From assembly GCA_011316305.1 (NCBI GenBank), contig SAUG01000137.1, positions 1 through 64,000 on the forward strand: DNA of 64,000 nucleotides. The letters run 5' to 3'. The notes under the pieces were generated by a model that searched no databases, had not been told where the DNA came from, and saw only the letters and a program-made list of their open reading frames with translations. Source of the DNA: Rusavskia elegans (taxonomy: Eukaryota > Ascomycota > Lecanoromycetes > Teloschistales > Teloschistaceae). Shown here in pieces: positions 20,627 to 62,190 of this stretch (the first letter of the stretch is position 1; every line of letters starts with the position of its first letter). Made by a program: the position numbers and the translations under genes.

Positions 20627-20943
20627 CACTTTGCGGACCGACGCAGTTCCCAATCGCTCTCGTCCGAGCGTGTGTGCGAGGTCATGGTCTACATTGCAAG
20701 GTCATACACACCCGAGGAATTTTACGAATTTCTTATACGTCTTCGGCGCTTGCCTGGTCCATGAGTCTGGGCGGGGGTGGATCCAAGCACGGCCAGCGTC
20801 AGGATATGTGGCGCGAATGATGGTGGAGCTCGCTGGATCCAGCAGCAGTGTACAGAAAACAGCATAGAGTCGTCGGTAGGCACATCGTAATGTCAATACT
20901 TAATTGGATGAGAGGAAAGGCAGCAGAAGTCGCGCTGCTACTA
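20627..20943. other. Intergenic between gene island and nested transposons
   Basis: Presumed 3' UTR of the preceding gene and a normal-composition spacer up to the TA dinucleotide (20942-20943) that flanks the outer MITE. No gene seen. Confidence 0.5.
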
Positions 20944-22070
20944 CAGTCGACCCTTCCTGTAATGAACAATCGTTTACAGGCCAGTAGGCCACCTGTTCAT
21001 TACAGAGCGAGATTCGTTGTCATAGTAATATTATACTATGTCAAAAATTAGTCTATACGCAATTGCTTGGCTCCAGCGAGCGGCGAGCGTTTATCAACCT
21101 TTTATACTTGCTCAACGCTGCTGGTTGAGCTATAATTAATAAACATGCTTCTTTGATTAAAAATAAGGATTTTAGGAAGGGCAAAAGGAACGTAGGACGG
21201 GAAAAGGCCCTGATATTTTGGTAGGAGGCGTTATGTCTTGGGGGCGCAAGAAGTGACCGCAAGAAAAAGTGAGCGCAAGAATCGCGGGAGCGCTAGCAAG
21301 GGGTCCGTCCAATCAGAATATCAGCCGGGGTTCTATCGGACCACTAAACTGACTTCTAGAGTAACAGTTCTTTCTGTATATATTATCAAAAGTGTCGACC
21401 CCGTTCAGAGTTAATTGAATAGGTCTGAACTGGTGAACGGATCTGATCCTATATCCTACCTAGCGCGTTATAAAAGCGTTTATAAGCAAGCCTTTTATTT
21501 ATAAGCAAGATTTTAGTTTATAAACGTTTATAAACGCCTTGAGCGCCTTGAACGCTTATAAACGAGTTTTAAAATTTTAAAAAAAATCTTTTAAAAATTC
21601 TAAGTCCTTCTATCTAGTAGAACTACTAGTATTCTATAAAATATCTATACTATTAAACTTTTAGCGTAGATTTTGAAAATTTTATTTATAGAACGCTAGC
21701 GTTGCTAGTTTCTAAACTAGAAACTTTTTATTATTAAACGGAAACTAACGGATACTAAATTTTAAAAAGTTTAATTTTGAAATTTTAAATATAAATAAAA
21801 TAGACGTTTTTAGAATATATCTAAATTTTTCTATTTATTAAATAAAATAATTTTATTTAAATCGGTTTAAACCGGTTTAAACGATTTTAAATATTTTTTT
21901 CATTTTAAAATACTATAAACGGATTGTATATTTGCTGACATAAAATAACTTTTACGTAACGTAAAATAATTAGCTATCTTTTAACTGGATTTAAAGAATT
22001 TATTTAACGTTTTCGATATATTTAATTTATATATTTATTTACTTTATAGGCGTTAAATAATCAAGCGTCT

Positions 22071-22522
22071 TGTTATAAATACAGACGGTGAATTTTCGGA
22101 AACGCGGTAGTATTTAGTACAACGTAGGATTTTCTATTACGTTTCGATAGATAAAAATATATAGGACGGTTTTAATATTAATACTAAAAAGTATTTTAAT
22201 AGTTTTAGTAAATAAATACTATAAATATCTCTAGTTTTAGTAGTTTTAGCGAGTAAATATTCTAAAATAAAATTATTTTAGTTATTTTAATTAATAAATA
22301 ATCTAAATAGTAGAGGATTTTATTATTTATATAAATTCCGAACTCGACGTTTTTATAGCTTATATTTAATTTATTAATTATCGCTATATACTATTCTAGT
22401 AATTAGATTAATTTATTTTTATATTAATTTAAAATAATTATCCGTTATATTTCCGTTTAAAGATATACTAATAAATCTAACCAATTTTTAGAAATATCAA
22501 ATTTCCAGATAACTTTATAATA
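22071..22522 (+). repeat. 5' LTR of Gypsy-A1
   Basis: 452 bp; shares its sequence with 50547-51036 and with the A2 LTRs. Contains three copies of a ~38-41-bp internal repeat, one fewer than its partner. Confidence 0.85.
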
Positions 22523-23160
22523 TTTTAAATACCTTTAAAATATCTATCGCAGGTTAATATTAAACCTCTATTTTAAATAGTTCCAGTTCTATAATAAAAA
22601 AGTCCGAATCTAAAAATAAAAAGATTTAAATAAAAGATAATAGTAGTAATAAAAAGGTTAGTACTTCTACTACTAGTTACTATAACTATAGTATTAAAGT
22701 TAATAAATCCGATAAATATTATAGAAATCGAAATAAACTAAAAGATTGGTTCGTATAATTAAATATATACTTTATATTTTATTTTATATCCGAAAAAAAG
22801 GAAATTTTTTTTACCGTATTTTATCTTCGAAAATAAATTTAGTATTGGATAAAACCTTTTCTACGCTAATATATAGACGATAAAGAAAATAATAAATATA
22901 TTTTTATATAGTTTATATAATTTAAAAAAGCTATTCGTAATATTTTCGGAATTTCGAACGAGATTTTAATTACTAAACGTATCGTTTAATATCTTTAATA
23001 GAAAACTATAGTATCGAAATATACCGTACGGTTTAAAAAGTAGTCGCTATTAATAGAATAGAACGACGACGTCTTATATATAATATATAGATAAAGGTTA
23101 AAAAAATAATTAAAAGATAAATTTATACGCGATAATCGAATATATAAAATTTTAGATAAT

Positions 23161-23401
23161 TATTATAAATCGATTTAAGATAATAATAATAGCTTGATAT
23201 TTCTATATAAATGGAAAGCTCTTCTATAAATAAGCGAATAAAGCTGAACGTTAGGCTTAATTAGATAACGAATTCTATAGAGTTAATAAACCGCGGTTAA
23301 CGGGATTTAATTAGTATATTAGTTAGCCGGTACTATTAGCTAGTATTTCTATATCTACTAAATTTTATATAAGTTCTAGATAGTTTAAATAGCTTATAAT
23401 A
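23161..23401 (-). repeat. LTR of Gypsy-B1 (3' in coding sense)
   Basis: 241 bp, ends TATTATAAATCG and ..CTTATAATA (RIP forms of TG..CA). Contains the GC-richer island around CCGCGGTTAACGGG and GCCGGTACTA shared by all four B LTRs. Confidence 0.8.
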
Positions 23402-26400
23402 AATACTATAAAATAAAAAAATAGTATCGCCTTTAATATACTCGTATTAAATATTTAAAAACTTTAAAAATATTAAAAATAAAGACGTTAAAAAGTTAAA
23501 AAGAAAATAGTACTACTAGAAATTAAACCCGAGCTATACTAAAATCTCTAAATAATAAAAAGCGGTTAATAAAATAGCCGAGCTAATTTTTTTATTATTT
23601 AAATAGAAATAGTATATACTACTACTATACTATACCGTCTAGTAATAGAATTTTTAAATTGAAATCTAATAGATAATAATAGTATTTTACTAAATATAAA
23701 AAGAAATATAATTATATTAAATCGAATATATAAAGCGCCGGCGAGATATAATAATTTATAAATATTTTAATTTTAGTCCGAAATAGTATAAAAGGTCTAC
23801 TAGCGGTATAGATATTTAAAGTTCTAATTATTATAATATTATTAGAATATAATTAGATTATTACTAATAATAAAGTCTAGATAAAAGAAAAAAATATTTA
23901 TTATATTTATTAATAAAATCTATATAATATATTAAATTTTATAAATTATACTAGCTATTATATTATAGTTTATAGCCTTTCTATTTAATTAGATACTAGA
24001 AACGCTAGTATACTTTTCGCCGATCTATAATTTATTCTATTTCGAATTAATTAAAATTTTTTTCCGGAAATTTTATTTCGATAGTAGAAAACTTATTATT
24101 AACCGAAATCCGGTTAAAAGAATTATTATTAATAGATATTAGTTTTAATTAGTTTATAGAAATAATAGATTAGATTTTTATAGTAGTAAAAAATTCTAAT
24201 TTATATATAAAATATCCGATTATATAATTTATTTTAAACGGACTAGTTTATTAATATAAAAGTTTTTAATTAATAATATTTAATAGTATATATCTATAAT
24301 AAAGCTTTAAAAAAAATCTTATTATTTAGTTTAAAAAACCTAGCTTTATATAGATTATTATAATAGATTTTAGAAAAAACGATATTAAAAGCTATTATAT
24401 TTTTTACTTCTACGCGTTTAATAGATTTTAGGTATTTTATATCTTCCGGTAGTAGATCTATTAAAATACTAACTGTATTTTTAAATCGAAAGCCTAGTAC
24501 TAATTTATTAGGGGCTGTATTAATAGTAAAACTAGTTATATTATTAAATATAAACTATAGAACTAAAATAGCTTTAATTTAATTTTTATCTAGATATTTT
24601 ATAAATTAAAAGCGGAAACTAATTTTTATTATTTAATTAATTTATTCCGATTATCTATCGATTTAGAGGTAATATATTATAGATACTAAAATTTTCGTTT
24701 CTAGCTTTTAGAAAATCTAACGCTAGAGAAATAATATAAATTTATAATCTCTATTACTAATAATAACTAATAGAACTTTCTAGTTATATTCGAATAAAGT
24801 AGTAATAATAAAGTTTATTTAATTAATTATAAAGTAAATAATCTATTTAGAAATTAGTAGAATTTATTTAATATATTTAAATATAATTATTAATATATAA
24901 TCTTTAATAAAAAACTTTATAGATAATATAAATATAAAATCTATTATAATTATATAAAATAGTATTTTCGGAAAAATTAAATTAAAGAAACTATAAAATC
25001 TATACCGCTTTATTTAATTTAACTAGTATTACTAGCAGTATTTTATAAATTCTTTAATCTTTTTATATATATTATAAATAAAAATCGATAAATAGAATTT
25101 TTTATATATATAATAATATTTTTAATAATATCGGTTATAAATTTTACTAATAATTTTATCTATAAATTTATCCGAAATATAGAATTGATTTCGGCTATTT
25201 TTAGAAATATAGTAAAAGAATTTATTATATATTCGGAAATTAATATCTAGTATATAATATTTATTATTTTTAATATTAAAATCTAGTTTCTAGATTTATA
25301 GTATTATAATAATTTTAATCTATTATTTATTATTAATATAATCTTTTTTAATATATTATTTAAATTTATTTATTATTTCGATAAATATTATATAGTATAT
25401 AGATATAATAGTATCCGAAATATATTATAAAATATCTTTTTTATTATTAAATTTAGTATTTTCGTATAATATATTTAAAATACCTTTTTTATTTTTAACC
25501 GGTATATAGAAGACCTTCGTTTTAAATTATAATAAAATATTAGAAACGATATTAATTTTATCTATTTTATAATATAATTTAATATTAAAAGCCGAAAAGT
25601 ACTATAATATACGAATAAATTTTAAATTTAATTTATTAATACTTATTATTTTAAACGAAATCTATTTTAAAATCGAAACCGCTACTAAATAATTAATATA
25701 TATAATTACTAGTAGCTTTAATAATAATATAATAAAACAATAAACTTTTTTTATTATTTAGATAATTTTAATAACTTCTAATTTAGTAGGTTAATAATTT
25801 TATTCGGCGCTATTAAAATATTTATTTAAAAATATTATTAGTTATATTTTAATAGATAGAAAATTTTGATTAAAGTATTTTTTAATATAGTAGATAATTA
25901 CTATAAAGCCGAATTACTTTAATATATCTAGATCGATATAGAATTTTTTTATAGAATCGAAATAATAAAAAAAGATTAGTAATTTAAATACTATTTATAA
26001 TATCCGAAAAGATTTTTTTTTTCTAAAATAGAATTATATTTTAATTTTATTAATTAGAATTTATATTTAAATTTTTTAAAACTTTATTTAAATTCTTTTA
26101 TAAATAGAATTTTCTTTTTTTATAAAAATTCGGCGAGCTATATATATTCTATAATTATATAATATAGCTAGCTAGTTATTTCGAAATAGATTTTTAGATT
26201 TTATAAATATTTAGAAAAAACTTTTTCCGAAATAATTTTAATTTTATTTTCTAAAATAGTTATTTCTAGTATATTAATATATTATCTAAATAAATAAATT
26301 AAAAAATATTCTATAAATAATTTAAAAAATATAAAATTTATTTATTTTTTTTAAAATAAAATAAAAATTTAATTTAGATATTTTAGATATTCTTTTAAAT

Positions 26401-29400
26401 AATATAAAAAGATTATAATATTATTTATATAAATTTTAATAAAATTTTTAAATAAATAAAATAGTTTATTAATCTAATATTATATATATAGTAGTAAACT
26501 TTTATATTCTATAAATATTACTAAAATTTATTTCTATCTATAATAAAAAACTATAATAAATTTATAATAATTATAGTATTAGATTTTAAACTAATAAAAC
26601 TATTTTATAATATTAATAAAAGAAATATAGAAATATTCTAATATTAAAATAATAATATCTATTTATAATAAAAAAAAATAACTATTTATTTTTATATTAG
26701 CGTTAAAGTTTTAGATATTAACTACTATTTATCTCTTTTTTATACTATTTAAAAAAGTTTTTTATATTATAAAAATAGAATATATAAAAAATATTAGCTA
26801 TTTAAAATATTTTATTATATTTTATTTATAGAATTTATTAAAAGTTTTATTAAATTTAATACGGTCTATATAATTTAGATTATAAATTTTTAAAAATATA
26901 GATTTTTTTTTTTTTTTTAGAAATATTAATATCTATTTTTTTTTTAAAAATATCTATTATAATTCTCTAATTAGTAAATATATTTTTTTATTTTTTAGTA
27001 ATAACGGCTAGTTATTACGCTACTAGTAGTTTACTATAAACTATAATATTATTAAATAAACGCTATTTTAATTTAAAATTAATAGATATAGTAAAAAAGA
27101 TTAATTTAATAAATTTAATATTTTTAGTTAGATTCGCGTTAAATTTTACTAAAATTTTATTAAAATTTATTTTATTAACCGGATAGAAGGCGTTCTAATT
27201 TATTAGAATATTTCGCGTATTAATTATATTAAATAATTTTAGATAATATACGGTTTTATTTTATATAACTATAATAGTAACGAGTATTATTATAATTTTA
27301 ATAGTTACTTTTTTTATTAATTTTTTAATAGTATATTTTATAATATTTTATATTAATTTTATTATAAATAGAATTAGATTAGAAATAGTAGTATAGTATT
27401 TTTTATATCGATTTTTAATAATTTTTCTAAACTAAATTTATTTAAATAAAACTACCGGCGAGTAGTTTATATTATAGATATTTATAAAATTAAATAAAAC
27501 GTTAACTATATAAATAAAATCGCTATTATTAAAATTAAAATTTATTTTCGAAATTAATTTTAATTTAGATTTAAAAAAAAATTACGGTTTTCGGAAATAT
27601 TATTTTAATATTATACTAGAATCTATATAATTCTATTAGATTTTAAAATAATATTATTTTAAACTTTAATAATATATTTAAAATTAGACTTTTTATATAT
27701 ATAGAAGTTAAAATTAACTTTAAAGTTTTTATAACTACCGATAATAATTTACTATTTTTAATAATCTAGAATTATTTTTTCCGGAATTAAAATATTTATA
27801 TCTAATAATAGTTTGATTTATAGATTTTTAATAATATAGATCTTTTTTATAAATTCTATAATAGTTAAATCGCCTTTTAAATAGAAAATAAAAATAGTAA
27901 ATTTATCGGTTCGATAGATTTATTCGCCTATATTATAAATAGGAATCTTTTTTAATAGTTTTTTAATTTTAATACTTTCTAGAATAAATTTATTATCGGC
28001 TATTAATATTATATATTTTAAATTAATATATATATCTCTAATATTAGATATATTCGGATAGAAAACTAATAAAATAATAATATAATAGAAATATTTAAAA
28101 GCTAAACTAGTTTCTATAATCTATTTACTATTTAAAATAATTACGCGAAATATAGAAATATCTTTTTTACTAAAAAACTATTTATTAGTAATAAATATTT
28201 ATATTTCGGCTTTATTACCTTCCGTATTCTAGTAAACGGTTTTAAAATACTTAAATAATTTATTATATAACTCGAATAAAATATTATATTTTTAATACGA
28301 ATATAAAACTTTCGATCTATTATTAATAAAATTCTAGCTAACTTTTTAATATTCTAATTATTTATTAATTCTATTATAGTATTCGATTTTTTTATTATAA
28401 AATTCGGTAAACCTATTATTATAATATCTATAAATAGAATCCTATTTAATATATTAGATATAAATCTCTTTTATAATAGTATAATCTTCGTTATATATAT
28501 TTTTATAAATTTCTATTTAATAGATTTATTAAAGCGGAACTAGCGGTATTAAATATTAGAAATTTAAATTAAAAAAAAATCTTTTTTAAAACTAGTTATT
28601 ATAAAATTTTTAAAGTCTATTACTATACGCTAGCGTAGAATTCTATTATATTAGAAAGAAATTTCTTTATAGATTTTCTAATCTATTTATAAATATAGAA
28701 TAAAAAAAATTTATATTATTTTAAATAGAAAATATTTCTAGTAGATTTCTTTTAATAAAAGGAAGCTAATATTTCTAAAAAGATTAAAAAATTTACTAAA
28801 TTATAGAATATTAATATTTATATCCGGAAAAACCGAAACTAAATATTAATTAATATATTAGATTTTTTAATATTAGTTAAAACCGAAATAGAAATAGATT
28901 TTTTATTTATTAATAGCTAGAATTATTAGAAGATATTTTCCGGAATTACCGGAAATAATCTTTTTCTATAATTTAGATTTCGAATTTATAATTATCTATT
29001 AATCGAAAGAATATATTAATAGTAATCTTTTTTATTAATTTAAAAATTAAAGTAGTATAAAAAAAATAGCGAGATCTATTTATATCTATATAATAATTTA
29101 CTAAATATTAGTTATTTCGGCGATTTCTATAGTTTAAAACCTAGCCTAGCTATATTCGCGAGGTTTATAATAGCGATTTATATTTTTAATAGTAAATTTT
29201 TTTTTATTTAAAATATATATTTCTTTTTCTATTAGTAATTTAAAGTAAATAATTAAGGTATTAATCTATATATCGAAGTTTTTTATTAGATATTTCTTTT
29301 TTATATCTAAAAGTTCGTTAGAATATTATTATAAAGTTTTACTATAAAAATATTTTTATAGATTCTTTTTAACTTTACTATTTAATCTAGTAAAATTTTT

Positions 29401-30422
29401 AGTTTATTTAGTAAAAATATAGATATTATAAAAGTAGATATCTTTATCTATATATTTAATATAAAACTTAGTTTCGGTAAATTTATTATTATAGAAAAAA
29501 TAGAAATAGTTAATATTATTTATAATAAATTTCTTATATTTATCGGCTTTAATAGAAAATATAGAAAGTTTAGATAGTAATAAAAATATCTTTTTCTTTT
29601 ATTAATTTTATTAGCGAAATTCTATAAACTTTATCTAGATTATAATATTCTATTCTTTTACCTTTTTAAAAAATTATATTATTATAGATTTAAAGTTATA
29701 GTTTTATACTATATTTAGTTTCCGAAATATATTTAATTTAGATAAAATAAAAAGTTCCGCTAGAATTTTATTAATTATATCTTTTTTTTTTTTACTTTTA
29801 ATAGAAATTTAATAATTTACGATAGTTTATATATTTATAAAATCGTTTCGGAACTTTATAATATTCTTTTTAAAATATTTAATAATAGTTTATATTATAT
29901 CCCCGCTATCTAACTATTTATCGGACTATCTAGATAATCGGAATAGCCGGAAGGATAATTTTATTTTAGTATCTATAGTATTATCTACTTCGATTCTAAA
30001 AGATCTAGAATCGCTATAATTATTATATATAAAGTTTAATAAATCTAGTATATTCTAATATTAATTAGTAGTATATTTAGAGCCGGTTCTATCTATAAAT
30101 TCGATAAATTAGTACCCGAAAAAGATAGTACTATTATCGAAAAATAGAAATAGTTTATCTATCGCTATTATAATTAATTAAAGTCTAATTAATAAACCGG
30201 TTTATTTCTATTATATCTAAATATATAAGATATAATTAGTAAAAAACGGAAATTATTTAATAAATACTACTAATAAAATATATTTAATTAAAATAATCAG
30301 TATTTCTGAAAATATAGATAACGTTACTAGTATTATTAATATTTATAAACGGAAATTAGTATTTATATATACTATATATATATTATATAGTATATATAAA
30401 TAAATTTTTTATTACTACTAAT

Positions 30423-30663
30423 TATTATAAATCGATTTAAAATAAATATAATAGTTTAATATTTCTATATAGATAGAAAGTTCTTCTATAAATGAACGAA
30501 TAAAGCTAAACGCTAGATTTAATTAAATAACGAATTCTATAAAATTAATAAACCGCGGTTAACGGGATTTAATTAATATATTAGTCAGCCGGTACTATCG
30601 GCTAGTACTTTTATATCTACTGAATTCCATATAAGTTCCAAACAATTCAAATGGTTTATAATA
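30423..30663 (-). repeat. LTR of Gypsy-B1 (5' in coding sense)
   Basis: 241 bp, same orientation as 23161-23401, less mutated at several sites (for example TGAATTCCAT). Confidence 0.8.
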
Positions 30664-31190
30664 ATAATCTAATTAAAATATTTATTCACTTCGATAATAA
30701 ACTATATAAAAGAGATATAGAAAAACGCTATAATAAAAGACTACGAATTAATACGAGATATTATTCTAGAAAACTATATAGAAGATAGCTATTAAATAAA
30801 AGGACCGGAGAGAGCTACTATAAATCTATATCTATAGAACTAGACTCTATATAATAGTAGCGTAAAAGAAAGAATTTTAGAAATAATAAAAGAAATAAAA
30901 ATTCTAAAACGTACTATAATTATAGTAAACTAGGCTATTTCGCGAAAAAGTATTAATCGAATAAAGTATAATAACGACAGTTTAACGCTACGTTAAAAAA
31001 ACCTAAAAACTAGTAAAAAATTATTTTAAAAGACGATAACAGTAGTTTTAAACTCTAGAAAGTTAATTCGAATAAAAAATTTATATTTATAAAAAACGAT
31101 AAAGTACTATAAAAAGCTATAATAAATAATATTTCGCTATAAATTTTAATAAAATCTACTAGAAGGAAAGCCGCCTTTAGATAGGAATAT

Positions 31191-31815
31191 CAGTATTTCC
31201 CAAAACCGACTTGAAGCCGGTTTTAACCGTTTTAGCCGTCTCGGCCGGTTCTTAGCCGGTACGGCTAAAAGCGGCTTATAAACGGTATATTAGCCTGTCT
31301 TAGGTATACCCGAAGCTATATAGCTGCGCGGCTAAGACGGCTAAGACGGCTAAATAGCTAAAACGGCTAAAAAGATTTAAAGATTCGATTTTAAACTCGT
31401 TTAAATCTTTATTAGTAGTTAGTAGGCCTATATACGCCTATATATAACGCTAGGCTTGCTTCGTCTAGATCGAAAATATTAGATTTCTTTACTAGAATCT
31501 AATTAAATTAGATCTAGTATAGTTTATTAAATAGATATTCGACTTCCGTTATTCCTACTTTTAGCGGCGGCCGCTAAACTTTATTTTCGAATAAAGTTAT
31601 ATAGATTTATTTTTAGCTTATATATAGATTCTATTTTAGACAATTTACTAAATAGATATTCGTACTATAGATACTATTAGAATTCTAATCTATCGAAAAT
31701 CTATTTTTTAGATTTTTAGATTATTTAGATTTTTAGATTATTTAGATTTTTAGATTATTTGGATTGAAATAGCTATCAGCCGGTCTAATTTGAAAATCCA
31801 TTTTAAAATTCGCTG
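31191..31815 (-). mobile_element. hAT-like MITE, copy 2, inserted in Gypsy-A1
   Basis: 625 bp, inverted relative to the copy at 854-1430. Begins CAGTATTTCC and ends AATTCGCTG (reverse complement CAGCGAATT). The GCCGG/AGCCG field lies at about 31200-31370. Outside bases AGGAATAT and ATGAAATT only weakly resemble an 8-bp duplication. Flanks on both sides are colinear with Gypsy-A2, so it interrupts A1. Confidence 0.65.
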
Positions 31816-34800
31816 ATGAAATTATAATAATAGAAAACGTCAGATTAATATACTTTTAAATTTTTTATAATAAAAAATTAGTAAAAAAAAAGTTTATAAT
31901 AATCTATAAAAAATTTTAAAATGTTTATAAAATATATATTAATAATAAATATCTATAAAACGATTAGTAGAATTAGAAAGTAAATAATATTATTAATATA
32001 TTAGAAAAGAAACTAGAAAATAATACTTTTAAAAATTAAGATATTTCTAAACCGATATTATAATAGAAAAATATAATAGTAGAAAACCAATATATACTAC
32101 GTAGTTAGATCGTCTACTATAATAACGACTATAAAATCTATAAATTAGAAAAAGAAAAAGCCGGATAGTATCTATTGAAACCACGCCGATATATTCTCGT
32201 AATATCTATTAAAATCGGAAGTTATAATATTTATAACTATTTTAGAAACGCTATCTATAGTAGATATAACTATTAAAAGAAATAGTAAAAATAAAATAGA
32301 ATCTTTAATTAGAACCTCTATAGATATATTTTACAGGTAAACTATAAAGATAGAAAATACGAAAATATTAAAAATAACTCGGGAAAAATTAAAATCTTAT
32401 AGTAATAGGTATACTATAAATATATAACTTTATAGCCTGGAAAAAGTAACTAAATTTAGCTAGCTATATATATATATTCGAAGTTAAAATAATTATTAAA
32501 ACTAATAACAGATTATAGAAGATTAAAATATTTATTAATTTAAATACGATCGAAAATTTCGTATTAGAAAATTTAGCTAAAAGGAAAGAATTCCCTTAAA
32601 TTTAAAAAAGAGATCTATATAATTTAATAGTAATTAATAGAAATAAAATACCGAATAGAAATAAAAAGATTATAGAAGAAATAATACCGCTTTAAATAAT
32701 AATTAACTAGTTTTAAAAGAAATTTTAATTCGACGTCGTTTAGATAATCAGCTACGATATTATATTTAAAATATTTTAGTTAAAAGATTATAATCTAGTA
32801 ATAGACTAGAAAAAAAAATACTTAGCTTTAAATAATATTCCTATATAGGAAATATCTAGCCTACGCCGAAGTAGCGATTTCGGGTAGATAAAAAGTAAAA
32901 TATAAAATACGAATTTATAACTTCGAAAAAAAATAACTAAAAACTATTTAGGTCCGATTTATTAGATACTAGTAGAAATTAGCTAGATTAATAAAATAGA
33001 AATAGAAAGAAAAATTATAAATCTTTCGAAAACTCTATATTATCTAATAAAAAGTTAATAGAAAACCTATTAGAAAAAGTTCTAGATAAATATAAAAATT
33101 AGATAAATTTATTTTAGAAAAAAGTAACTATAAAAATACTATCTAAATATTAATTATAGAATTATAAAATCAGATTTAAACCAAGTAAATAACCTACGTT
33201 TAAATCTATCTATCTATTATCTATAATAGAGCTCGAAATATTCTATAAATATCTAGACGAAAATATAAAAAAGAGATTTATTAGAAAGTTTTAATTACTA
33301 GTAGGATATCCGATCCTCTTTATATCTAAAAAGGATAAAATATTCTATTTATATATCGATTACCGGAAGCTAAATAATATTATAATTAAAAATCGATATC
33401 TACTATTAAATATTAGCGAACTTTAAAATAGATTTTCTAAAGTAAAATATTTTATAAAATTCGACTTTAAAAGAATATATAATTTTATACGGATAAAAAC
33501 CGAAAAAAAATAGAAAATAACTTTCCGAATACGATATAGTTATTATAAATATATAATAATACTATTTAGATTTATAAATATCTCGGTAATCTATTAGAAT
33601 ATAATTAATAATATATTTAGAAAATATTTTAATATATTTATTATCGCCTACTTTAATAATATTCTAGTTTTTTCTAAAATATTCGAAGAATATAAATAAT
33701 ATATTAGTAATATTTTTAAATATCTAAAAGGAAAAAATTTACGCTTTAAACTAGAAAAATATATATTTTATAAAGAAGAAATCGATTTTCTAAAATTTAT
33801 TATAGAGCGAAATAGACTATATATCGATTCTAGTAAATTAAAAGCTATTATAAAATAGGAAATACTAATAAATATTAAAGAAATCTAAAGTTTTTTCGGA
33901 TTTATAAACTATTCTAAAAGAAAAACTTTTATTCTAATAACTTTAATAAAAGATACTATCGAATAGTATTAGAAAAAAAGAGAATAATAAATATTCGAAG
34001 ATTTTAAAAGAGAATATATAAAAGATATAGTATTTAAAATATTTAATTTAAAGAAACTATTATAAATAAAAATAGATTTATTAAATCTAGCTATAGATAT
34101 ATACCTTCTATAATAATATAATAGTAAATAGTATCTAGTAATATATATATTAAAAAATATATCGCTAGCGGAATAGAATTATAATATTTATAATAAAAAA
34201 CTACTAGCTATAGTAGCTATACTAAAATAATAGAAAGTATACGCCGAAAGATTACTAGAATTAATAATTTTTATAGACTATAAAAACCTTTTATATTTTA
34301 TAATAATAAAATAATTTAATAGAAAATAAATATAATAGTCTAAACTCTTCGGTTAATATATATTTAAAATATACTATATTCTAAATAAAGAAAATAGAAA
34401 AATAAACGTTTTAAATCGAAAAAGTTTTTATATAAAAATAAGAGAGGTTTTTAATAATAATATTCTAAAAATTAATAAAAATAAATTACTATTAGCGAAT
34501 TAATATAAGATAAATATAACGTTATATATATTCCGAAATAACTAGAAATAATTTTCTATTAAAAAAAGAAAACTATAAGTATTAGATAATAAAATCGATA
34601 AATATATTAAAGAATACTATAATAGAATACTATAAAAGAATCGAAGCGTAATAAAGATAATATAACTTTTATAATAATATTACTAGTTTTTATTTTAGTT
34701 ATTAGTAAAATAAATATAGTATATATACTCGTTATAGAAAGATCTAGTATTAGAAACTATCGGATTTATTATAAAAAAAAGTTATATTAAATTTTATTAT

Positions 34801-35517
34801 TAAATTCCCGAAATTAAAAGACCCGATAATAAATATAGAATATAATTCGATATTTAATATAATAGATAGATTTACGAAATATATTTATATAATTCTATCT
34901 AGAAAAGATTTTATAATAAAATAATTCGAATTTATTATTTTAGATCGATTATTTCGGTACTATAGACTGCTAGAAATATTAATAAATAATAGAAATATAC
35001 TTTTTACTTTAAATTATTAAAAAATCTTTATTTTTCTATTTAGTATTAAATTAAAAATATTAATAGCTTTCTATCCGATAACGGATAAATAGATAGAATA
35101 TACTAACTAGACGTTTAAATAATATCTAAAGTATTATATTAATAACGTTTAAAATAGTTAGATTTTATTTATATTAATAGTATAAATAGTATTTAATATA
35201 AAGAAATCTTATATAATAAAAGAAATACTATTTTATATTAATAATAGAAGAAATCCGAACCTATTCGAACGACCGCTACTATATAGGTTAGCGGAATTAG
35301 TATTTAAAAGAGTCGAAATTTAGAAAAAAATCTATAGAAATATCCTAAAAATATAGAAATATTCGAGTAAATACTAAAATAAAAAGCGAAAAATAGTATT
35401 TTAGTTAAAAAAAGGAAATAAAGTATACCTTTTTATAAAAAATCTAAAAATAAAGACTCTAAATAAAAAACTAGACTATATTAAAGTCGGACTATTTTTA
35501 ATTAGAAAAATTAAAAA

Positions 35518-35759
35518 TATTATAAATCATTTAAATTATTTGGAATTTATATAGAATTTAATATATATAAAAGTACTGGCCGATAGTACCGGCTGACTAA
35601 TATACTGACTAAATTCTATTAACCGCGATTTATTAGCTCTATAGGATTCGTTATCTAATTAAATCTAGTATTTAATTTTATTCGTTTATTTATAGATAAA
35701 CTTTCTATCTATATAGAAATATTAAGCTATTATTATTATTTTAAATCGATTTATAATAA
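35518..35759 (+). repeat. 5' LTR of Gypsy-B2
   Basis: About 242 bp; inverted relative to the B1 LTRs; carries the conserved GGCCGATAGTACCGGCTGAC core. Confidence 0.8.
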
Positions 35760-38700
35760 TTAATAGTAATAAAAGATTTATTTATATATATTATATAATA
35801 TATATATAACGTTTATAAATATTAATTTCTATTTATAAATATTAATAATACTAGTAATATTATCTATATTTTCGGAAATACTGATTATTTTAATTAAATA
35901 TATTTTATTAGTAGTATTTTCTAAATAACTATCGTTTTTTACTAATTATATTTTATATATTTAGATATAATAGAAATAAATCGGCTTATTAATTAAATTC
36001 TAATTAATTACGATAGCGATAGATATACTACTTTTATTTTTTAATAATAGTACTATTTTTTTCGAGTATTAGCTTATCGAATTTATAAATAAAACCGGTT
36101 CTAGATATACTATTAACTAGTACTAGAATATATTAGATTTATTAAATTTCGTATATAATAATTATAGCGATTTTAAACTTTCTAAAATTAAAGTAGATAA
36201 TATTATAAACGTTAAAATAAAATTATTTTTCCGGTTATTCCGATTATCTAGATAGCCCGATAAATAGTTAGATAGCGAGACTATAGCGCGAGCTATTATT
36301 AAATATTTTAGAAAAAGTATAGCGAAGTTCCGAAACGACTCTATATATATATAAGTCTTTATAAATTATCGAATTTCTTCTAAAAGTAAAAAAAAAAAAG
36401 ATACGGTTAATAAAATTCTAACGAATTTCTCTATTTTATCTAAATCGGATATAATCCGAAAACTAAATATAACGTAAGACTATAGTTCGGACCTAGTAGT
36501 AATATAATTTTTTAAAAAGTTAGAAAAATAGAATATTATAATCTAGATAGAGTTTATAGAATTTCGCTAATAAAGTTAATAGAAAAAAAAGATATTTTCG
36601 CTATCGTCTAAACTTTCTATATTTTTTACTAGAGCCGATAAATATAAGAAATTCGTTATAGGCGATATTAACTACTTTTATTCTTTCTATAATAATAAAT
36701 TTACCGAAATCGGGCTTTATATTAAATATATAGATAAGAATATCTATTTCTATAATATTTATATTTTTACTAAATAAGTTAAAAATATCGCTAGATTAAA
36801 TAATAAAGTTAAAAAGAATCTATAGATATATTTTCGCGGTAAAATTCTATAATAGTATTTTAATAAACTTTCGGATATAAAAAAGTAATATCTAATAAAA
36901 AACTTTAATATATAGATTAATATTTTAATTATTTACTTTAAACTACCGATAGAAAAAGAAATATATATTCTAAATAAAGAAAAGTATACTATTAAAAATA
37001 TAAGCTACTATTATAAATTTTACGAATATAACTAGATCAAGTTTCGAGCTATAAAGATTATCGAAATAACTAATATTTAGTAAATTATTATATAGATATA
37101 AATAGATTTTATTATTTCTTTTTATACTATTTTTATTTTTAAACTAATAGAAAAAACTATTATTAATATATTCTTTCGATTAATAGATAATTATAAATTC
37201 AAAATCTAGACTATAGAAAAAAACTACTTTTAGTAATTCTAAAAAATATCTTTTAATAATTCTAACTATTAATAAATAGAGAATCTATTTCTATTTTAGT
37301 TTTAACCGGTACTAGAAAATCTAATATATTAATTAATATTTAGTTCCGGTTTTTCCGGATATAAATATTAGTATTCTATAATTTAAAAAACTTTTTAGCC
37401 TTTATAAAAATATTAGTTTCCTTTTATTAAAAGAAATCTACTAGAAGCGCTTTCTATTTAAAATAGCGCGAATTTTTTTTTTTTATATTTATAAATAGAT
37501 TAGAAAATCTATAAAAGAATTCCTTTCTAATATAGTAGAATTCTATACTAGTATATAGTAATAGATTTTAGAAATTTTATAATAACTAGTTTTAAAAAAG
37601 ATTTTATTTCGGCCGAAACTTTTAACGTTTAACGCCGCTAGTTCTGTTTTAATAAATCTATTAAATAGAAATTTATAAAAATATATATAGTAAAGATTAT
37701 TTTACTATAGAAAAAACTTACGCCTAATATATTAAATAAAATCTTATCTATAGATATTATAGTAATAGATCCGCCGAGCTTTATAATAAAGAAGTCGAAT
37801 ATTATAATAGAATTTATAAAAAATTAGAATATAAAGAAATTAGCTAGAACTTTATTAATACTAGACCGAAGATTTTATATTTATATTAGAAATATATTAC
37901 TTTATTCGAATTATATAATAAATTATATAAATATTTTAAAACCGTTTATTAAAATACGGAAAATAACGAAGCCGAAATATAAATATTTATTATTAATAAA
38001 TAATCTTCTAGTAAAAAAGATATTTTTATATTTTATATAATCGTTTTAAATAGTAAATAGATTATAGGAACTAGTTTAGCTTTTAAACGTTTTTATTACG
38101 TTATTTTTTTATTAGTTTTCCGTCCGGATATATCTAATACTAAAAATAAAAATACTAATTTAAAATATATAATATTAATAGCCGATAGAAAATTTATTTT
38201 AAAAGATATCGAAATTAAAAAACTATTAAAAAAGATATCTATTTATAATATAAGTAAATAAATCTATCGAACCGATTAATTCGCTATTTTTATTTTTTAT
38301 TTAAAAGGCGATTTAGCTATTATAGAATTTATAAAAAAGATCTATATTATTAAAAATCTATAAATTAATTTACTATTAAATATAGATATTTTAATTCCGG
38401 AAAAAATAATTTTAGATTATTAAAAATAGTAAATTATTATCGGTAGTTATAAAAATCATAAAGTTAACTTTAATTCCTATATATATAAAAAGCCTAATTT
38501 TAGATATATTATTAGAATTTAAAGTAATATTATTTTATAATCCAATAGAATTATACGAGTTCTAATATAATATCGAAACGATATTTCCGGAAACTATAAT
38601 TTTTTTTTTAAATCTAAATTAAAGTTAATTCCGAAAATAAATTTTAGCTTTAATAGTAGCGCTTTTATCTATATATTCGACGTTTTATTTAGCTTCGTAA

Positions 38701-41700
38701 ATATCTATAACGTAAGCTACTCGCCGGTAGTTTTATTTAAATAAATTCGGTTTAGAAAAATTATTAAAAATCGGTATAAAGGATATTATATTACTATTTC
38801 TAATCTAATTCCGTTTATAGTAGAATTAATATAAAATACTATTAAATATACTATTAAGAAATTAATAAATAAAATAGCTATTAAAGCTATAGTAATATTC
38901 GCTACCGTTATAATTATATAAAATAAAACCGTATATCGTCTAGAATTATCTAATATAGTTAATATACGGAATATTCTAATAAAATAAAACGCTTTCTACC
39001 CGGCTAATAAAATATATTTTAATAAAAGTTTAATAAAATTTAGCGCGAATCTAGTTAAAAATATTAAATTCGCTAAATTAACTTTTTTTACTATATCTAT
39101 TAATTTTAAATTAAAGTACCGTCTATCTAATAATATTATAGATTATAGTAAACTATTAGTAGCGTAATAGCTAGCCGCTATTACTAAAAAATACTAAAAT
39201 ATATTTTCTAATTAAAGAACTATAGTAGATATTTCTAAAAAAAAAATAGATATTAATATTTTTAAAGAAAGAAATAAAATCTATATTTTTAAAAATTTAT
39301 AATCTAAACTATATAAACTATATTAAATTTAAAAAAACTTTTAATAAATTCTATAAATAAAATAAAATAAAATATTTCGAATAGCTAACGTTTTTTATAT
39401 ATTCTATTTTTATAGTATAAAGAATTTTTCTAAATAGTATAAAAAAGGAATAAATAATAATTAATATCCGAAATTTTAATATTATTATAGAAACAGATAG
39501 TTATTTCTTTCTATTATAAACGGATATTATTATTTTAATATTAAAATACTTCTATATTTTTATCGTTAATATTATAAAATAATTTTATTAATTTAAAATC
39601 TAACGCTATAATTATTATAAACTTACTATAGTTTTTTATTATAGATAGAAATAAACTTCGATAACGTTTATAAAATATAAAGGTTTACCGTTATATATAT
39701 AGTACTAGACCGATAAATTATTTTATTTATTTAAAGATTTTACTAAAATTTATATAAATAATATTATAATCCTTTTTTATAGTTTAGAAAAGTATTTAAA
39801 GTATTTAGATTAAATTTTCGTTCTATTTTAAAAAAAATAAATAAATTTTATATTTTTTAAATTATTTATAGAATATCTTTAAGTTTATTTACTTAGATAA
39901 CGTATTAATATACTAGAAATAATTATTTTAAAAAATAAAATTAAAACTATTTTAGAAAAGACTTTTTTTAAATATCTATAGAATCTAGAAATCTATTTCG
40001 AAATAACTAGCTAGTAATATTATATAATTATAGAATATATATAATTTACCGAATCTTTATAAAAAAGAAAGATTCTATTTATAAAAGGATTCGGACGAGG
40101 CTTTAAAAAATTTAAATATAAATTCTAATTAATAAAGTTAAAATATAATCCTATTTTAAAAAAAAAGGAATTATTTCAGATATTATAAATAGTATTTAAA
40201 CTACTAATTTTCTTCTATTATTTTAATTCTATAAAAAAGTTCTATATCGACCTAGATATATTAAAATAATAGGATTTTATAGTAATTATCTATTATATTA
40301 AAAGAAATTTCGATAAAAACTTTCTATCTATTAAAATATAGCTAATAGTATTTTTTAGTAAATATTTTAATAGTATCGAATAGAATTATTAGTCTACTAA
40401 ATTAGAAATCGCTAAAATTATTTAAATAATAAAAAAAATTTATAATTTTATTAATTTATTATTAAAGCTACTAGTAATTATATATACTAATTACTCGGTA
40501 GTAGTTTCGATTTTAAAATAAATTTTATTTAAAATAATAAATACTAATAAATTAAATCTAAAATTTATTCGTATATTATAATATTTTTTAGCTTTTAATA
40601 TTAAATTATACTATAAAATAAATAAAATTAATATTATTTCTAATACTTTATTATAATTCGAAACGAAGGTTTTCTATATACCGGTTAAAAATAAAAAAAG
40701 TATCCTAGATATATTATATAGATATACCGAATTAAATAATATAAAAGATATTTTATAATATTTTTCGGATACTATTATACTAATATATTATATAATATTT
40801 ATTAAAATAGTAAATAAATTTAAATAGTATATTAAAAAAGGCTATATTAATAATAAACGCTAGATTAAAATTATTATAATACTATAAATCCAGAAACTAA
40901 ATTCTAATATTAAAAATAATAAATATTACGTACTAGATACTAATTTCCGAATATATAATAAATTTTTCTACTATATTTCTAGAAATAGACGAAATTAATT
41001 CTATATTCCGGATAAATTTATAAATAAAATTATTAATAAAGTTTATAATCGGTATTATTAAAATGATTATTATATATATAAGAAACTTTATCTATCGATT
41101 TTTATTTATAATATATATAAAAAGATTAAAGAATATATAAAATACTGCTAGTAATATTAATTAAATTAAACGAAACAGTATAGATTCTATAGTTTCTTTA
41201 ATTTAATTCCTTTAAAAATACCGTTTTATATAATTATAATAGACTTCGTATTCGCGTTATCTACGAAGTTTTCTACTAAAAATTATATATTAATAATTAT
41301 TTATAAATATACTAAAAAGGTTCTATTAATTTCTAGATAGATTATTTATTTTATAATTAATTAGGCGAACTTTATTATTATAGTTTTACTCGAATATAAT
41401 TAGAAAATTCTATTAGCTTTTATTAGTAATAGAAATTATAAATTTAGCTTATTTTTCTAGTATTAAATCTTCTAGAAACTAGAAATAAAAATTCTAATAT
41501 CTATAATATATTACTTCTAAACCGATAGATAATCGGAATAAATTAATTAAATAGTAGAAATTAATTTCCGTTTCTAGTTTATAGAATATCCGGATAAAAA
41601 TTAAATTAAAACTATTCTATTTCTATAATTCGCGTTTAATAATATAACTAGCTTTACTATTAGTATAGTTTCTAATAAACTAGTACTAGACTTTTAATTT

Positions 41701-42780
41701 AAAAATACGGTTAGTATTTTATCGGATCTACCGCTAAAAAATATAGAATATCTAAAATCTATTAAACGCGTAGAAATAGAAAATATAATAGCCTTTAGTA
41801 CTATTTTTTCTAAAATCCGATATAATAATCTATATAAGGCTAGATTTTTTAAACTAGATAATAAAGTTTTTTTAAAGTTTTATTACGGATATACGCTACT
41901 AGATATTATTAATTAAAAACTTTTATATTAATAAACTAGTCCGTTTATAATAATTTATAAAATCGGATATTTTATATATAAATTAAAACTTCCTACTACT
42001 ATAAAAATTAATTTTATTATTTCTATAATCTAATTAAAACTAGCGTCTATTAATAATAATCTTTTTAACCGGCTTCCGGTTAATAATAAACTTTCTACCG
42101 TTAAAATAAAATTTCCGGAAAAAGATTTTAACTAATTCGAAATAGAATAAATTATAGATTAGTAAAAGATACGCTAGCGTTTCTAGTATCTAGTTTAATA
42201 GAAAGGCTATAGACTATATTATAATAGCTAGTATAAATTATAAAATTTAATATATTATATAGATTTTATTAATAAATATAATAAATATTTTCTCTTTTTA
42301 TCTAAATTTTATTATTAATAATAATCTAATTATATTCTAGCGGTATTATAATAACCGGAACTTGAAATATCTATACTACTAGTAGATTCTCTATACTATT
42401 CCGGACTAAAATTAAAATATTTATAAATTATTATATTTCGCCGGCGCTTTATATATTCGATCTAGTATAATTATATTTCTTTTTATATTTAGTAAAATAC
42501 TACTATTATCTATTAGATTCTAATTTAAAAATTCTATTACTGGATACTATAGTATAGTAGTAGTATATACCGCCTTTATTTAAACGATAAAGAAATTAGT
42601 TCAACCGTTCTATTAGTTACTTTTTATTATTTAAAGGTTTTAGTATAGCTTGGGTTCGATTTCTAATAGTACTATTTTCTTTTTAACTTTTTAGCGCCTT
42701 TATTTTTAACGTTTTTAAAGTTTTTAAACGTTTAATACGAATATATCGAAGACGATACTATTTTTCCGTTTTATAGTATT

Positions 42781-43021
42781 TATTATAAACTATTTAAACT
42801 ATTTAGAATTTATATAAAGTTTAATAGATATAGAAATACTAGCCGATAGTACCGGCTGACTAATATATTAACTAAATTCCGATAACCGCGGCTTATTAAT
42901 TTTATAGAATTCGTTATCTAATTAGGTCTAGCGTTTAATCTTATTCGTTTATTTATAGATAAACTTTCTATATATAAAGAAATATCAAGCTATTATTATT
43001 ATCTTAAATCGATCTATAATA
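42781..43021 (+). repeat. 3' LTR of Gypsy-B2
   Basis: 241 bp; matches 35518-35759 and, inverted, the two B1 LTRs; followed by the AAAAG duplication. Confidence 0.8.
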
Positions 43022-43575
43022 AAAAGATTTTAGAACTTTAAATTTAATTTATTTAAAAATATAAAAATTTATCCGGTATTTTATATATCTTTTTTAGAAC
43101 TAATCGATTTCGGAACGCCGTTATAATAGATATTTAACTTCGAAATATAAAAGAAAAATATTTTTATAATTAAAAAAATCCTATAATAGGAAGATTAAAA
43201 CTATTTAATTAAATAGAAAAATTATTCTATTTTAGAAAATATCTAGAAATCTAGAGAATATTTAATAAACTACTAGAAAACTTTATAATAGTTCTATTAA
43301 AAGGAACTAAAAAAGTTATTAACTAACCGAAATCGCTAAATAGAAAAATCTACTCGGAAGTTATATCGATAAAAAAATTTAGATTTATAGAAAAAAATAG
43401 ATCCGCGGTAATAATTTTATATTCTAGTTTTTCAAAATTTTATAGTTTACTAATAACTATAATACGCTATTTTTTTTTAATATATTCTAATTAATAAAAT
43501 AGATATTATTACTTTATATACGCTTTATATAACTTTTTCTTTAACTTTTTACGTTTATTTTTAAAACGATACTAA

Positions 43576-44046
43576 TGTTATAAGCACGCGCGGCGTGACT
43601 TCAAGAACGTAGTAATACTTAGTACAGCACTGGAACTTCTTATTATATCTAGATAGATAGGAAGGATTTGGTATTATTATCTTAGTTATTTTAGCGGGTA
43701 AAGTACCTAAAAAAGGTTATTTTAGTTATTTTAGTAAATAAGGTATTTAAAGAAGATGATCTTAGTTATTTTAGCGAGTAAAGTACCTAAAGAAGATTAT
43801 TTTAGTTATTTCGACAAGTAAAATATCTAAGAAAAAGAGGATTTTATTATCTATATAGATCCTAAACTCGACGCCTTTATAGTTTATATTTAATTTATTA
43901 GTTATTACTATATACTATTCTAGTAATTAGACTAATTTATTTTTATATTAATTTAAAGTAATTATCTATTATACCTCCGTTTATAGATATACTAATAAAT
44001 CTAACTAACTTTTAGAGATACCAGGACTCTAGATAGTCCTATAATA
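43576..44046 (+). repeat. 5' LTR of Gypsy-A2
   Basis: 471 bp; begins TGTTATAAGCACGCGCGG. Contains about four ~41-bp internal repeats with the word TTAGTTATTTTAG between 43678 and 43845. Confidence 0.85.
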
Positions 44047-49816: not shown

Positions 49817-50287
49817 TATTATAAATACGCGCGGTATAATTTCAGGAATATAGTAGTACTTAGTATAATACTAGAACTTTTTATTATACCTAGATAGATA
49901 GGAAGGATTTAGTATTATTATTTTAATTATTTTAGTAGATAAGATATCTAAAGAAGGTTATCTTAGTTATTTTAGTAAATAAAGTACTTAAAAAAGGTTA
50001 TCTTAATTATCTTAGTAAATAAGATATTTAAGGAAGGTTATCTTAGTTATTTCGGCGAGTAAAATATCTAAAAAAAGGAAGATTTTATTATCTATATAGA
50101 TCCCGAACTCGACGTCTTTATAGCTCGTATTTAATTTATTAGTTATCGCTATATACTATTCTAGTAATTAGACTAACTTATTTTTATATTAATTTAAAGT
50201 AATTACCCGTTATATTTCCGTTTATAGATATACTAATAAGTCCAACCAATCTTTAGAGATACCAGGACTCCAGATAGCCCCATAACA
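49817..50287 (+). repeat. 3' LTR of Gypsy-A2
   Basis: 471 bp; ends AGATAGCCCCATAACA, the least mutated LTR end in the block. A purine-rich tract (AAAAGGAAGGAACGAGGGA) lies about 45 bp upstream and may be the former polypurine tract. Confidence 0.85.
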
Positions 50288-50546
50288 ACTAACACGTAGT
50301 ATCTAATAAAATAAAATTATAAAAATAAGTTTATTTTATATAAATAATATATTTTTCGAAACTATTATTAATATAATAGAATTTTTCCGACTAGAAATAA
50401 TTTTAATAAAAATATATAACTAATATACCGATATCTAATAATAGAATTTTTTTATAATAATTTTCGGTTAATAGTTTTTTCTTTTTACCTATAAAAAAAA
50501 AGAGATAATAGTTTTTCGGAACGAAAAATCTAAAGAAAAAATCTAG

Positions 50547-51036
50547 TATTATAAATATAGGCGGTATATCTTCGGAAATATAGTAGTATTTAATATAATA
50601 TAGAATTTTCTACTACGTTTCGATAGATAAAAATATATAGAACGGCTTTAATATTAATACTAAGAAATATTTTAGTAGCTTTAGTAAATAAATACTATAA
50701 ATACTCTAATTTTAGTAGTTTTAGTAAATAAATACTATAAATATTTCTAGTTTTAATAGTTTTAATAAATAAATATTCTAAAATAAAGTTATTTTAATTA
50801 TTTTAATTAATAAATAATCTAAATAATAGAAGATTTTATTATTTATATAAATTCCGAACTCGATATTTTTATAGCTCGTATTTAATTTATTAGTTATTAC
50901 TATATACTATTCTAGTAATTAGATTAATTTATTTTTTTTTAATATAAAGTAATTACTCGTTATATCTCCGTTTATAGATATATTAATAATCTAATCAATT
51001 TTTAGAAATATCAAATTTTTAGATAGTTTTATAATA
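50547..51036 (+). repeat. 3' LTR of Gypsy-A1
   Basis: 490 bp; followed at once by the CGTCT duplication. Contains four copies of the ~38-41-bp internal repeat. Confidence 0.85.
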
Positions 51037-51588
51037 CGTCTAAAATATTTTTATTCAGATTGCGATCGTATAGACAATTCTACTAGAAATACTAAATTTA
51101 AAACCTCTTTCTATTATATATACGTAATACGTACTTGACGTTATTATCTATAAATTATATAGATTAAAAAATTCGTTTAAATCTATTAAATAATATAAAA
51201 ATAATTGGATTTTAATTAATAACTGTTTAGAAATTATATATTTAATTCTACGAAATATAGAAAACTTGTTTGATAAATCTAATTAGACGGAACCCTCTGC
51301 TAGCGTTCCCGCGACTTTTACGTTCACTTTTTCTTACGGTCACTTCTTGCGCTCCTAAGATATAACGGGTAGGAAGAATTTTACCCGACCAATTAAAAGT
51401 TTAGAATTGCTTCTATTCTATACTTTTAACTATAGTAAATTCTATTCGAGATTTCTAAATATTCTTTTGATTTCCTTATAAAGAAACTTTCATTTTATCG
51501 TCTAACAAAATAATCGTTTACAATCATCTGATTCCTTATAAGGCGAGATTCACTATATACAGGTTCATTATAGCAAAGGTCGACTGTA

Positions 51589-62127: not shown

Positions 62128-62190
62128 GGACTGTGAAGAAGGCTTCTTGGACTGTGAAGAAGGCTTCTTGGACTGTGAAAAAGGCTTCTG
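62128..62190. repeat. 21-bp tandem repeat, three copies
   Basis: Units begin at 62128, 62149 and 62170 with GGACTGTGAAGAAGGCTTCT; the third has one substitution and drifts at its end. Period is a multiple of three but no supported gene covers it. Confidence 0.75.

What the first reader, a model, noticed from the sequence alone, without database searches (positions are those of the whole stretch)
20944..51586. A 30.6-kb nested transposon that can be fully unpacked from target duplications
Target duplications and repeat pairs resolve the block: a TA-flanked MITE contains a Mutator-like element (9-bp duplication), which contains Gypsy-A1 (CGTCT), which contains Gypsy-B1 (ATAAT), a hAT-like MITE, Gypsy-B2 (AAAAG) and Gypsy-A2 (ACTAA). 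Removing each insertion restores an element of plausible length (about 0.5, 1.17, 6.6, 7.5, 0.6, 7.5 and 6.7 kb). Two non-autonomous DNA elements as the outer shells indicate that the large AT-rich island grew from one small insertion.
Basis: seen in the sequence. Interest (0 to 1): 0.8.

Follow-up and report, generated by a model that had tools for sequence, protein, structure and literature searches.

The report
Eight nested dead transposons, one island

Summary
The nest is real. A TA-flanked inverted-repeat element (495 bp) holds a Mutator-type element (606 bp). That holds an unreported 560-bp MITE and an LTR retrotransposon, A1 (6.6 kb). A1 holds LTR elements B1 and B2 (7.5 kb each), a 631-bp MITE and A2 (6.7 kb).

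Empty sites support six of the seven inner insertions: A2 serves for B1, B2 and its own site, other genome copies for both MITEs and A1.

Corrections: the "1.17-kb Mutator element" is 606 bp plus the missed MITE. The "hAT-like MITE" makes a 2-bp duplication (19 of 19 paired empty sites); both MITEs fit the published termini of PlavakaB, not hAT. AAAAG reads AAAAA on the left. A is an RVT_1-type LTR family; B's superfamily stays open.

The host is a Teloschistaceae lichen fungus (condensin protein 96% identical to Rusavskia elegans). Strong RIP explains the AT-richness. Nested RIPed transposon islands in a lichen fungus are already published (PMC12542154). No relative's empty outer site could be examined.

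The parts
20942..20943 (.). TA, left flank of the outer element
20944..21228 (+). outer TA-flanked inverted-repeat element (MITE-like, 495 bp in all), left piece, ending with the first copy of the 9-bp duplication
   Evidence: first 24 bp match the right end inverted at 21 of 24; weaker similarity to one stretch on C192
21220..21228 (.). 9-bp duplication GGTAGGAGG, left copy
21229..21380 (+). Mutator-type element (606 bp in all), piece a with the left terminal inverted repeat
   Evidence: colinear with C46:410-1049
21381..21940 (+).
   Evidence: empty site in C46
21943..22070 (+). Mutator-type element, piece b, ending with CGTCT
22071..23160 (+). LTR retrotransposon A1, piece 1 (5' LTR and start of the internal part), ending with ATAAT
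23161..30663 (+). LTR element B1 (7503 bp), duplication ATAAT 23156-23160 / 30664-30668; coding strand unknown
30669..31187 (+). A1, piece 2
31188..31818 (+).
31821..35517 (+). A1, piece 3
35518..43021 (-). LTR element B2 (7504 bp), inverted relative to B1; duplication AAAAA 35513-35517 / AAAAG 43022-43026
43027..43575 (+). A1, piece 4, ending with ACTAA
43576..50287 (+). LTR retrotransposon A2 (6712 bp), duplication ACTAA 43571-43575 / 50288-50292
50293..51036 (+). A1, piece 5 with the 3' LTR
51037..51041 (.). CGTCT, right copy of the A1 duplication
51042..51367 (+). Mutator-type element, piece c with the right terminal inverted repeat
51368..51376 (.). 9-bp duplication, right copy GGTAGGAAG
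51377..51586 (+). outer element, right piece and right end
51587..51588 (.). TA, right flank of the outer element

Best explanation
The block is a stepwise nest of eight transposons in an intergenic gap of a Teloschistaceae lichen fungus. Shown: a 495-bp TA-flanked inverted-repeat element was split by a 606-bp Mutator-type element. That was split by a 560-bp MITE and by the 6.6-kb LTR retrotransposon A1 (order of these two unknown). A1 was split by B1, B2, A2 and a 631-bp MITE (order among these four unknown). [quoted passage not shown] Inferred: each insertion was tolerated because it landed in already neutral DNA; RIP acting on the large repeats in sexual cycles made the island AT-rich and leaked unequally into the shells, reaching the outer element on the right but stopping about 560 bp inside the left end. 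The two MITEs were probably moved in trans by a PlavakaB-type transposase.
For: Every base of 20944-51586 is assigned. A duplication flanks each of the eight elements, with one mismatch in two of them. Empty sites: A2 reads through the B1, B2 and A2 target sites with no gap over 80-82 columns. C46:410-1049, a 640-bp Mutator-type copy with a perfect 9-bp duplication TGCATCTGG, lacks both M560 and A1. M630's left and right flanks were listed at 39 places each outside the window; 19 pair up side by side and all 19 overlap by exactly 2 bp. Lengths match LTR pairs elsewhere. RVT_1 at an expected offset from 17 of 40 A places. RIP: TpA/ApT 1.19-1.43 and (CpA+TpG)/(ApC+GpT) 0.03-0.13 in A and B pieces, against 0.39-0.80 and 1.18-1.49 in host flanks. 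A1 carries 575 RIP-like differences and A2 274, in the same direction in 5 of 5 pieces, as expected if A1 is older. Longest stop-to-stop frame in A2, B1, B2 and the largest A1 piece: 86 aa; none of 150 aa or more anywhere in the block.
Against: LTR identity does not recover the order: A1 88.8%, A2 84.8%, B1 86.3%, B2 87.1%. Transversions are too few (4, 1, 2, 4) to decide. The outer element has only one diverged relative found (C192): its left piece resembles the corresponding left part of it only weakly (52 of 77, E 0.033), its better match there is to an inner repeat on the right side, and C192's flanks read TA and CA, not a clean duplication. The flanks of M630 in A1 do not align with A2, so A1 and A2 are diverged there and in the start of the LTR. 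The A1 empty site in C46 aligns with gaps and more mismatch. Two of five other Mutator-type loci examined (C70, C206) do not show pieces a and b side by side, and the far end of C204 was not found. No unoccupied outer site was seen.
Confidence: 0.93

Rival explanations
1. Assembly artefact: repeats were misjoined and the nest does not exist as one molecule.
For: The block consists of high-copy repeats (555 first-look candidates for the A LTR, 206 for the B LTR, 40 scored in each case), the kind that misassembles; no reads could be inspected.
Against: Matching duplications on both sides of every element, and pieces of A1 and of the Mutator-type element that continue each other across each insert, are not expected from misjoins.
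Confidence: 0.03
2. One reading: seven elements, with a single 1.17-kb Mutator-like element and a hAT MITE.
For: Terminal repeats and the 9-bp duplication of the Mutator-type element are real.
Against: 560 bp of the '1.17 kb' is an independent repeat (40 scored of 142 candidates), absent from the C46 copy. The 'hAT' MITE shows a 2-bp duplication in 21 of 28 usable copies (8.0 expected) and an 8-bp one in 0 of 28; 19 of 19 paired empty sites overlap by 2 bp.
Confidence: 0.01
3. The outermost pair of ends is not a transposon but a chance or host inverted repeat, so the true outer shell is the Mutator-type element.
For: No close copy found in 44 Mb (the tool warns that no match does not show rarity); a TA flank is weak evidence; the C192 relative matches the left piece only weakly.
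Against: 21 of 24 matching inverted ends exactly at the two edges. The right piece matches C192 well (E 5.9e-11 genome-wide), and that stretch has roughly similar ends about 348 bp apart, set by eye.
Confidence: 0.08

Closest known systems
Nested, RIPed transposon islands of the lichen fungus Cladonia rangiformis (PMC12542154; section 6 and passages read)
   Same: Very AT-rich TE islands with sharp edges to gene space, nested TEs, retrotransposons in ripped DNA, small DNA transposons less ripped, later insertions less ripped.
   Different: Another lichen fungus; here one nest is resolved base by base with empty sites.
AT-rich isochores of Leptosphaeria maculans (Rouxel et al. 2011; recalled, paper not held)
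   Same: RIPed mosaics of nested retrotransposons between genes (recalled).
   Different: Plant pathogen, Dothideomycetes; the small DNA-element shells were not compared.
PlavakaB DNA transposons (PMC12730594; section 20 and passages read)
   Same: Termini CATCA..TGATG and 2-bp duplications, as in the least mutated copies of M560 and M630.
   Different: The Plavaka families that paper reports rebuilding come from Agaricomycotina; these are short, non-coding and in an ascomycete; no transposase was sought here.
Mutator-like elements (MULEs; features recalled)
   Same: Long terminal inverted repeats (about 90 bp) and 9-bp duplications.
   Different: Non-autonomous; no transposase seen.
Ty3/gypsy LTR retrotransposons (features recalled)
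   Same: Family A: LTRs, 5-bp duplications, RVT_1-type reverse transcriptase.
   Different: Family B: LTRs and 5-bp duplications, reverse transcriptase type not established.

Membership tests
Ty3/gypsy LTR retrotransposon (family A: A1, A2) | LTR pair with 5-bp target duplication | tested here: met
Ty3/gypsy LTR retrotransposon (family A: A1, A2) | RVT_1-type reverse transcriptase inside the element | tested here: met
   17 of 40 A LTR places outside the window (13 distinct hits) have RVT_1 on the same strand 3112-3194 bp after a 5' LTR start or 3037-3057 bp before a 3' LTR start; 3 further hits lie at other offsets or on the other strand. The window's own copies are not among the 150 scored of 422 candidates
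Ty3/gypsy LTR retrotransposon (family A: A1, A2) | integrase downstream of reverse transcriptase | not tested
Ty3/gypsy LTR retrotransposon (family B: B1, B2) | LTR pair with 5-bp target duplication | tested here: met
   (B2: one mismatch)
Ty3/gypsy LTR retrotransposon (family B: B1, B2) | RVT_1 (gypsy) or RVT_2 (copia) reverse transcriptase | tested here: inconclusive
   no repeated offset among 36 B LTR places; one isolated RVT_1 (C186) and one RVT_2 (C91) within 7.6 kb; 150 of 422 and 150 of 217 candidates were scored, and the RVT_2 list was cut at its end
Mutator-like element | 9-bp (8-11) target duplication | tested here: met
   window 8 of 9, C46 9 of 9, C178 7 of 9 (both differences transitions); C204 0 of 9 with its far end not located
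Mutator-like element | long terminal inverted repeats | tested here: met
   21229-21317 against 51367-51278, 85.6% over 90 columns
Mutator-like element | MULE transposase in an autonomous relative | not tested
   none sought
   0 of 28 usable copies with a 5-9 bp match, 21 of 28 with 2 bp; 19 of 19 paired empty sites overlap by 2 bp
PlavakaB (M560, M630) | termini CATCA..TGATG | tested here: met
   both ends exact in only 2 of 28 M560 copies (L053, L054) and 1 of 28 M630 copies (L012); other copies differ mostly by C/T and G/A changes such as TATTA and TGATA, as RIP would give
PlavakaB (M560, M630) | 2- or 3-bp target duplication | tested here: met
   23 of 28 (9.5 expected) and 21 of 28 (8.0 expected); TA in 14 and 13 of these, the rest TT, AA, GA, CG, AC, AT, CT, GT
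PlavakaB (M560, M630) | Plavaka transposase with matching ends | not tested
TA-flanked MITE, Tc1/mariner type (outer element) | TA duplication and terminal inverted repeats | tested here: met
   superfamily assignment recalled, no transposase seen
TA-flanked MITE, Tc1/mariner type (outer element) | multiple copies | tested here: not met
   one diverged relative on C192 and no close copy found

The most novel reading that the evidence does not exclude
Two abundant MITE families of this lichen-forming ascomycete (M560, M630) are offspring of PlavakaB, a lineage whose published families with these termini come, in the one paper read, from Agaricomycotina. A PlavakaB transposase would then have been active in Teloschistaceae, by old inheritance or by transfer, and able to insert at 2-bp sites that need not be TA.
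Probability: 0.47. Interest if true: 0.4.

Novelty: new member of a known kind. Interest (0 to 1): 0.28.

Why it matters
A nest whose layers are fixed by duplications and empty sites gives a relative clock that does not depend on LTR divergence. Here LTR identity would misorder A1 and A2 in RIPed DNA, while RIP load agrees with the nest. It also shows a large island whose outermost layers are two small elements. The two MITE families would extend PlavakaB to a lichen fungus, if a transposase is found.

Tried and rejected
Close copies of the outer element: none with its ends at up to 3 mismatches and none for its left piece; one diverged relative for the right piece. LTR-pair dating of the order: rejected, because transitions dominate (46 and 70 transitions against 4 and 1 transversions in A1 and A2). 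A2 as empty site for M630: failed, because A1 and A2 differ there; replaced by other A1-type copies. Pfam on ten short frames of A and B: two weak, meaningless hits, eight without any. RVT_2 for B: no repeated offset. tRNA (ARAGORN, bacterial code) and Rfam scans of the window: none. hAT for M630: rejected. PHISTA and ESTA (TA duplications in PMC12730594) for M560 and M630: disfavoured, since 9 of 23 and 8 of 21 exact duplications are not TA. A search of the held library for Plavaka with Ascomycota gave 3 papers, of which only PMC12730594 was opened; Plavaka with lichen counted 2 and listed 1, an algal genome. So absence from print is not claimed. Searches for Teloschistaceae with transposon terms and for nested RIPed islands gave listings only, from which the papers named here were opened.

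Rows dropped: L070 from 29 fetched M560 loci, and L016 and L040 from 30 fetched M630 loci, for implausible length; the fetched loci are the best-scoring ones, and further scored places in each family were not fetched. In one search the window's own LTR places (2 A, 4 B) and five short sub-matches of B were left out, and only reverse-transcriptase rows on contigs with an A or B place were entered; RVT_2 was not held against A places. In one search the parts of A1 and A2 that did not align were not counted.

Full report
Where it is. The window is the first 64 kb of a 163-kb contig (C43) in a 44.16-Mb, 217-contig genome. Flanking frames are ordinary genes: condensin subunit 2, a Cdc6/ORC-like ATPase, DEP and RhoGAP domains, FGAR amidotransferase. 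The condensin frame is 96% identical over 88% of its length to a protein from a Rusavskia elegans assembly and 83% identical to one of Xanthoria calcicola, so the host is a lichen-forming fungus of Teloschistaceae (taxonomy). The exact species is not given by any search.

What is there. The block is bounded by inverted ends with TA outside them, and GC falls from about 53% to 12-25%. Self-comparison shows two LTR families. A occurs as A1 and A2; B occurs as B1 and, inverted, B2. A1 lies in five pieces. Each continues the previous one along A2: 22186-23160 to 43710-44684, 30664-31149 to 44680-45168, 31870-35516 to 45307-49016, 43022-43575 to 49013-49563, 50289-51013 to 49560-50264. At the B1, B2 and A2 sites A2 reads through the target with no gap over 82, 80 and 80 columns, of which 80, 78 and 79 are identical or transitions. 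At B2 the unoccupied site reads AAAAG, so the left copy AAAAA in the window is most likely a changed copy.

The missed element. A search with the claimed Mutator-type left part (21229-22065) matched over its whole length only in the window. Among the other scored places (40 scored of 142 candidates) the strong matches cover only query positions about 150-725. Copy edges give a 560-bp MITE, 21381-21940. The Mutator-type element is intact at C46:410-1049 (640 bp, perfect 9-bp duplication TGCATCTGG). C46 runs from piece a straight into piece b and on to piece c, lacking both the MITE and A1. On the alignment coordinates, pieces a and b overlap by exactly 2 bp in C46 and C178, and in C204 after extrapolating 7 bases; C70 and C206 do not show both pieces side by side. 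The window's Mutator-type element is therefore 606 bp.

The misnamed element. The 631-bp MITE in A1 (31188-31818) is a repeat family (40 scored of 239 candidates). Over 28 usable copies of 30 fetched, a 2-bp duplication is exact in 21 against 8.0 expected when flanks are shuffled between copies, and an 8-bp one in 0. For M560 it is 23 of 28 (29 fetched) against 9.5. Searching M630's two flanks separately listed 39 places each outside the window (40 scored of 153 and of 156 candidates). In 19 cases both flanks lie side by side, and in all 19 they overlap by exactly 2 bp. That is empty-site proof of a 2-bp duplication and excludes hAT. PMC12730594 (section 20 read) gives PlavakaB families 2- or 3-bp duplications and termini CATCA..TGATG. 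Both ends are exact in only 2 of 28 M560 and 1 of 28 M630 copies, the rest differing mostly by transitions as RIP would give. A transposase was not sought.

Accounting. 495 + 606 + 560 + 6599 + 7503 + 631 + 7504 + 6712 bp, plus 33 bp of second duplication copies, equals 30,643 bp, the whole block. Four A pairs (6715, 6710, 6622, 6712 bp) and two B pairs (7509, 7486 bp) among the listed places elsewhere match the restored lengths.

Which families. RVT_1 lies at one of two nearly constant offsets from 17 of 40 A LTR places outside the window, on the same strand (13 distinct hits); three further RVT_1 hits near A places are at other offsets or on the other strand. A is thus an RVT_1-type LTR element, as Ty3/gypsy is. 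For B, none of 36 places shows a repeated offset of RVT_1 or RVT_2; because only 150 candidates were scored for each family this is inconclusive. The outer element has one diverged relative on C192: its right piece matches well, its left piece weakly, and the flanks there read TA and CA.

RIP. A and B pieces have TpA/ApT of 1.19-1.43 and (CpA+TpG)/(ApC+GpT) of 0.03-0.13; host flanks have 0.39-0.80 and 1.18-1.49. The signature ends about 560 bp inside the left end (near 21,500) but reaches into the outer element on the right (to about 51,500). A1 has 575 RIP-like differences against 274 in A2, in the same direction in 5 of 5 pieces, in line with A1 being older. LTR identities (A1 88.8%, A2 84.8%) would give the opposite order. 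A1 and A2 are also diverged subfamilies, so part of the excess may be inherited. The longest stop-to-stop frame in A2, B1, B2 and the largest A1 piece is 86 aa, and none of 150 aa or more lies in the block.

How it works. Most likely, successive insertions accumulated in a gap between genes where each new insert did little harm, and RIP mutated the long repeats in sexual cycles. The order is shown; tolerance, targeting and the role of the small outer element as a 'seed' are inference. Between the nearest frames of 150 aa or more the host gap without the block is about 390 bases (frames end at 20867 and begin at 51907; whether these frames are genes was not shown), so a 495-bp element would itself have been a large share of the neutral target.

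What is known. PMC12542154 (section 6 and passages read) describes the same kind of structure in the lichen fungus Cladonia rangiformis: RIPed islands with sharp edges, nested elements, later inserts less RIPed, small DNA transposons less RIPed. PMC9907504 (passages read) reports that AT-rich regions make up significant proportions of mycobiont genomes in its Teloschistales study. The present case is a well-resolved new example. Its least ordinary part is the PlavakaB-like MITE pair.

Noticed in passing
21381-21940 and 31188-31818: Two MITE families share CATCAGC-like ends and 2-bp duplications that are often not TA, matching the published termini of PlavakaB transposons.
   Followed up: partly
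849-1433: A second M630 copy in the AT-rich left end of the window, duplication TA/TA (L011).
   Followed up: partly
1-500: Tandem array with a 111-bp unit (4.4 copies) at the start of the contig.
   Followed up: no
22187-22307, 43676-43830, 49918-50075, 50669-50852: The LTRs of family A carry a roughly 40-bp tandem repeat whose copy number appears to differ between LTRs, including the two LTRs of A1.
   Followed up: no
22071 and 43576: A1 and A2 differ in roughly the first 115-134 bp of the LTR and around 31150-31869 although colinear elsewhere: two subfamilies of A.
   Followed up: partly
22071, 43576, 23161, 35518: LTRs of A begin TGTTATAA and those of B begin TATTATAA, which would be the same end after one RIP change.
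   Followed up: no
L072 1235-1582 (C192): Diverged relative of the outer element (ends set by eye); both it and the window copy are followed by CTCACG on the right, two bases beyond the end.
   Followed up: no
62128-62193: Tandem repeat of a 21-bp unit (3.2 copies, 95% matches) in the GC-rich part of the window.
   Followed up: no
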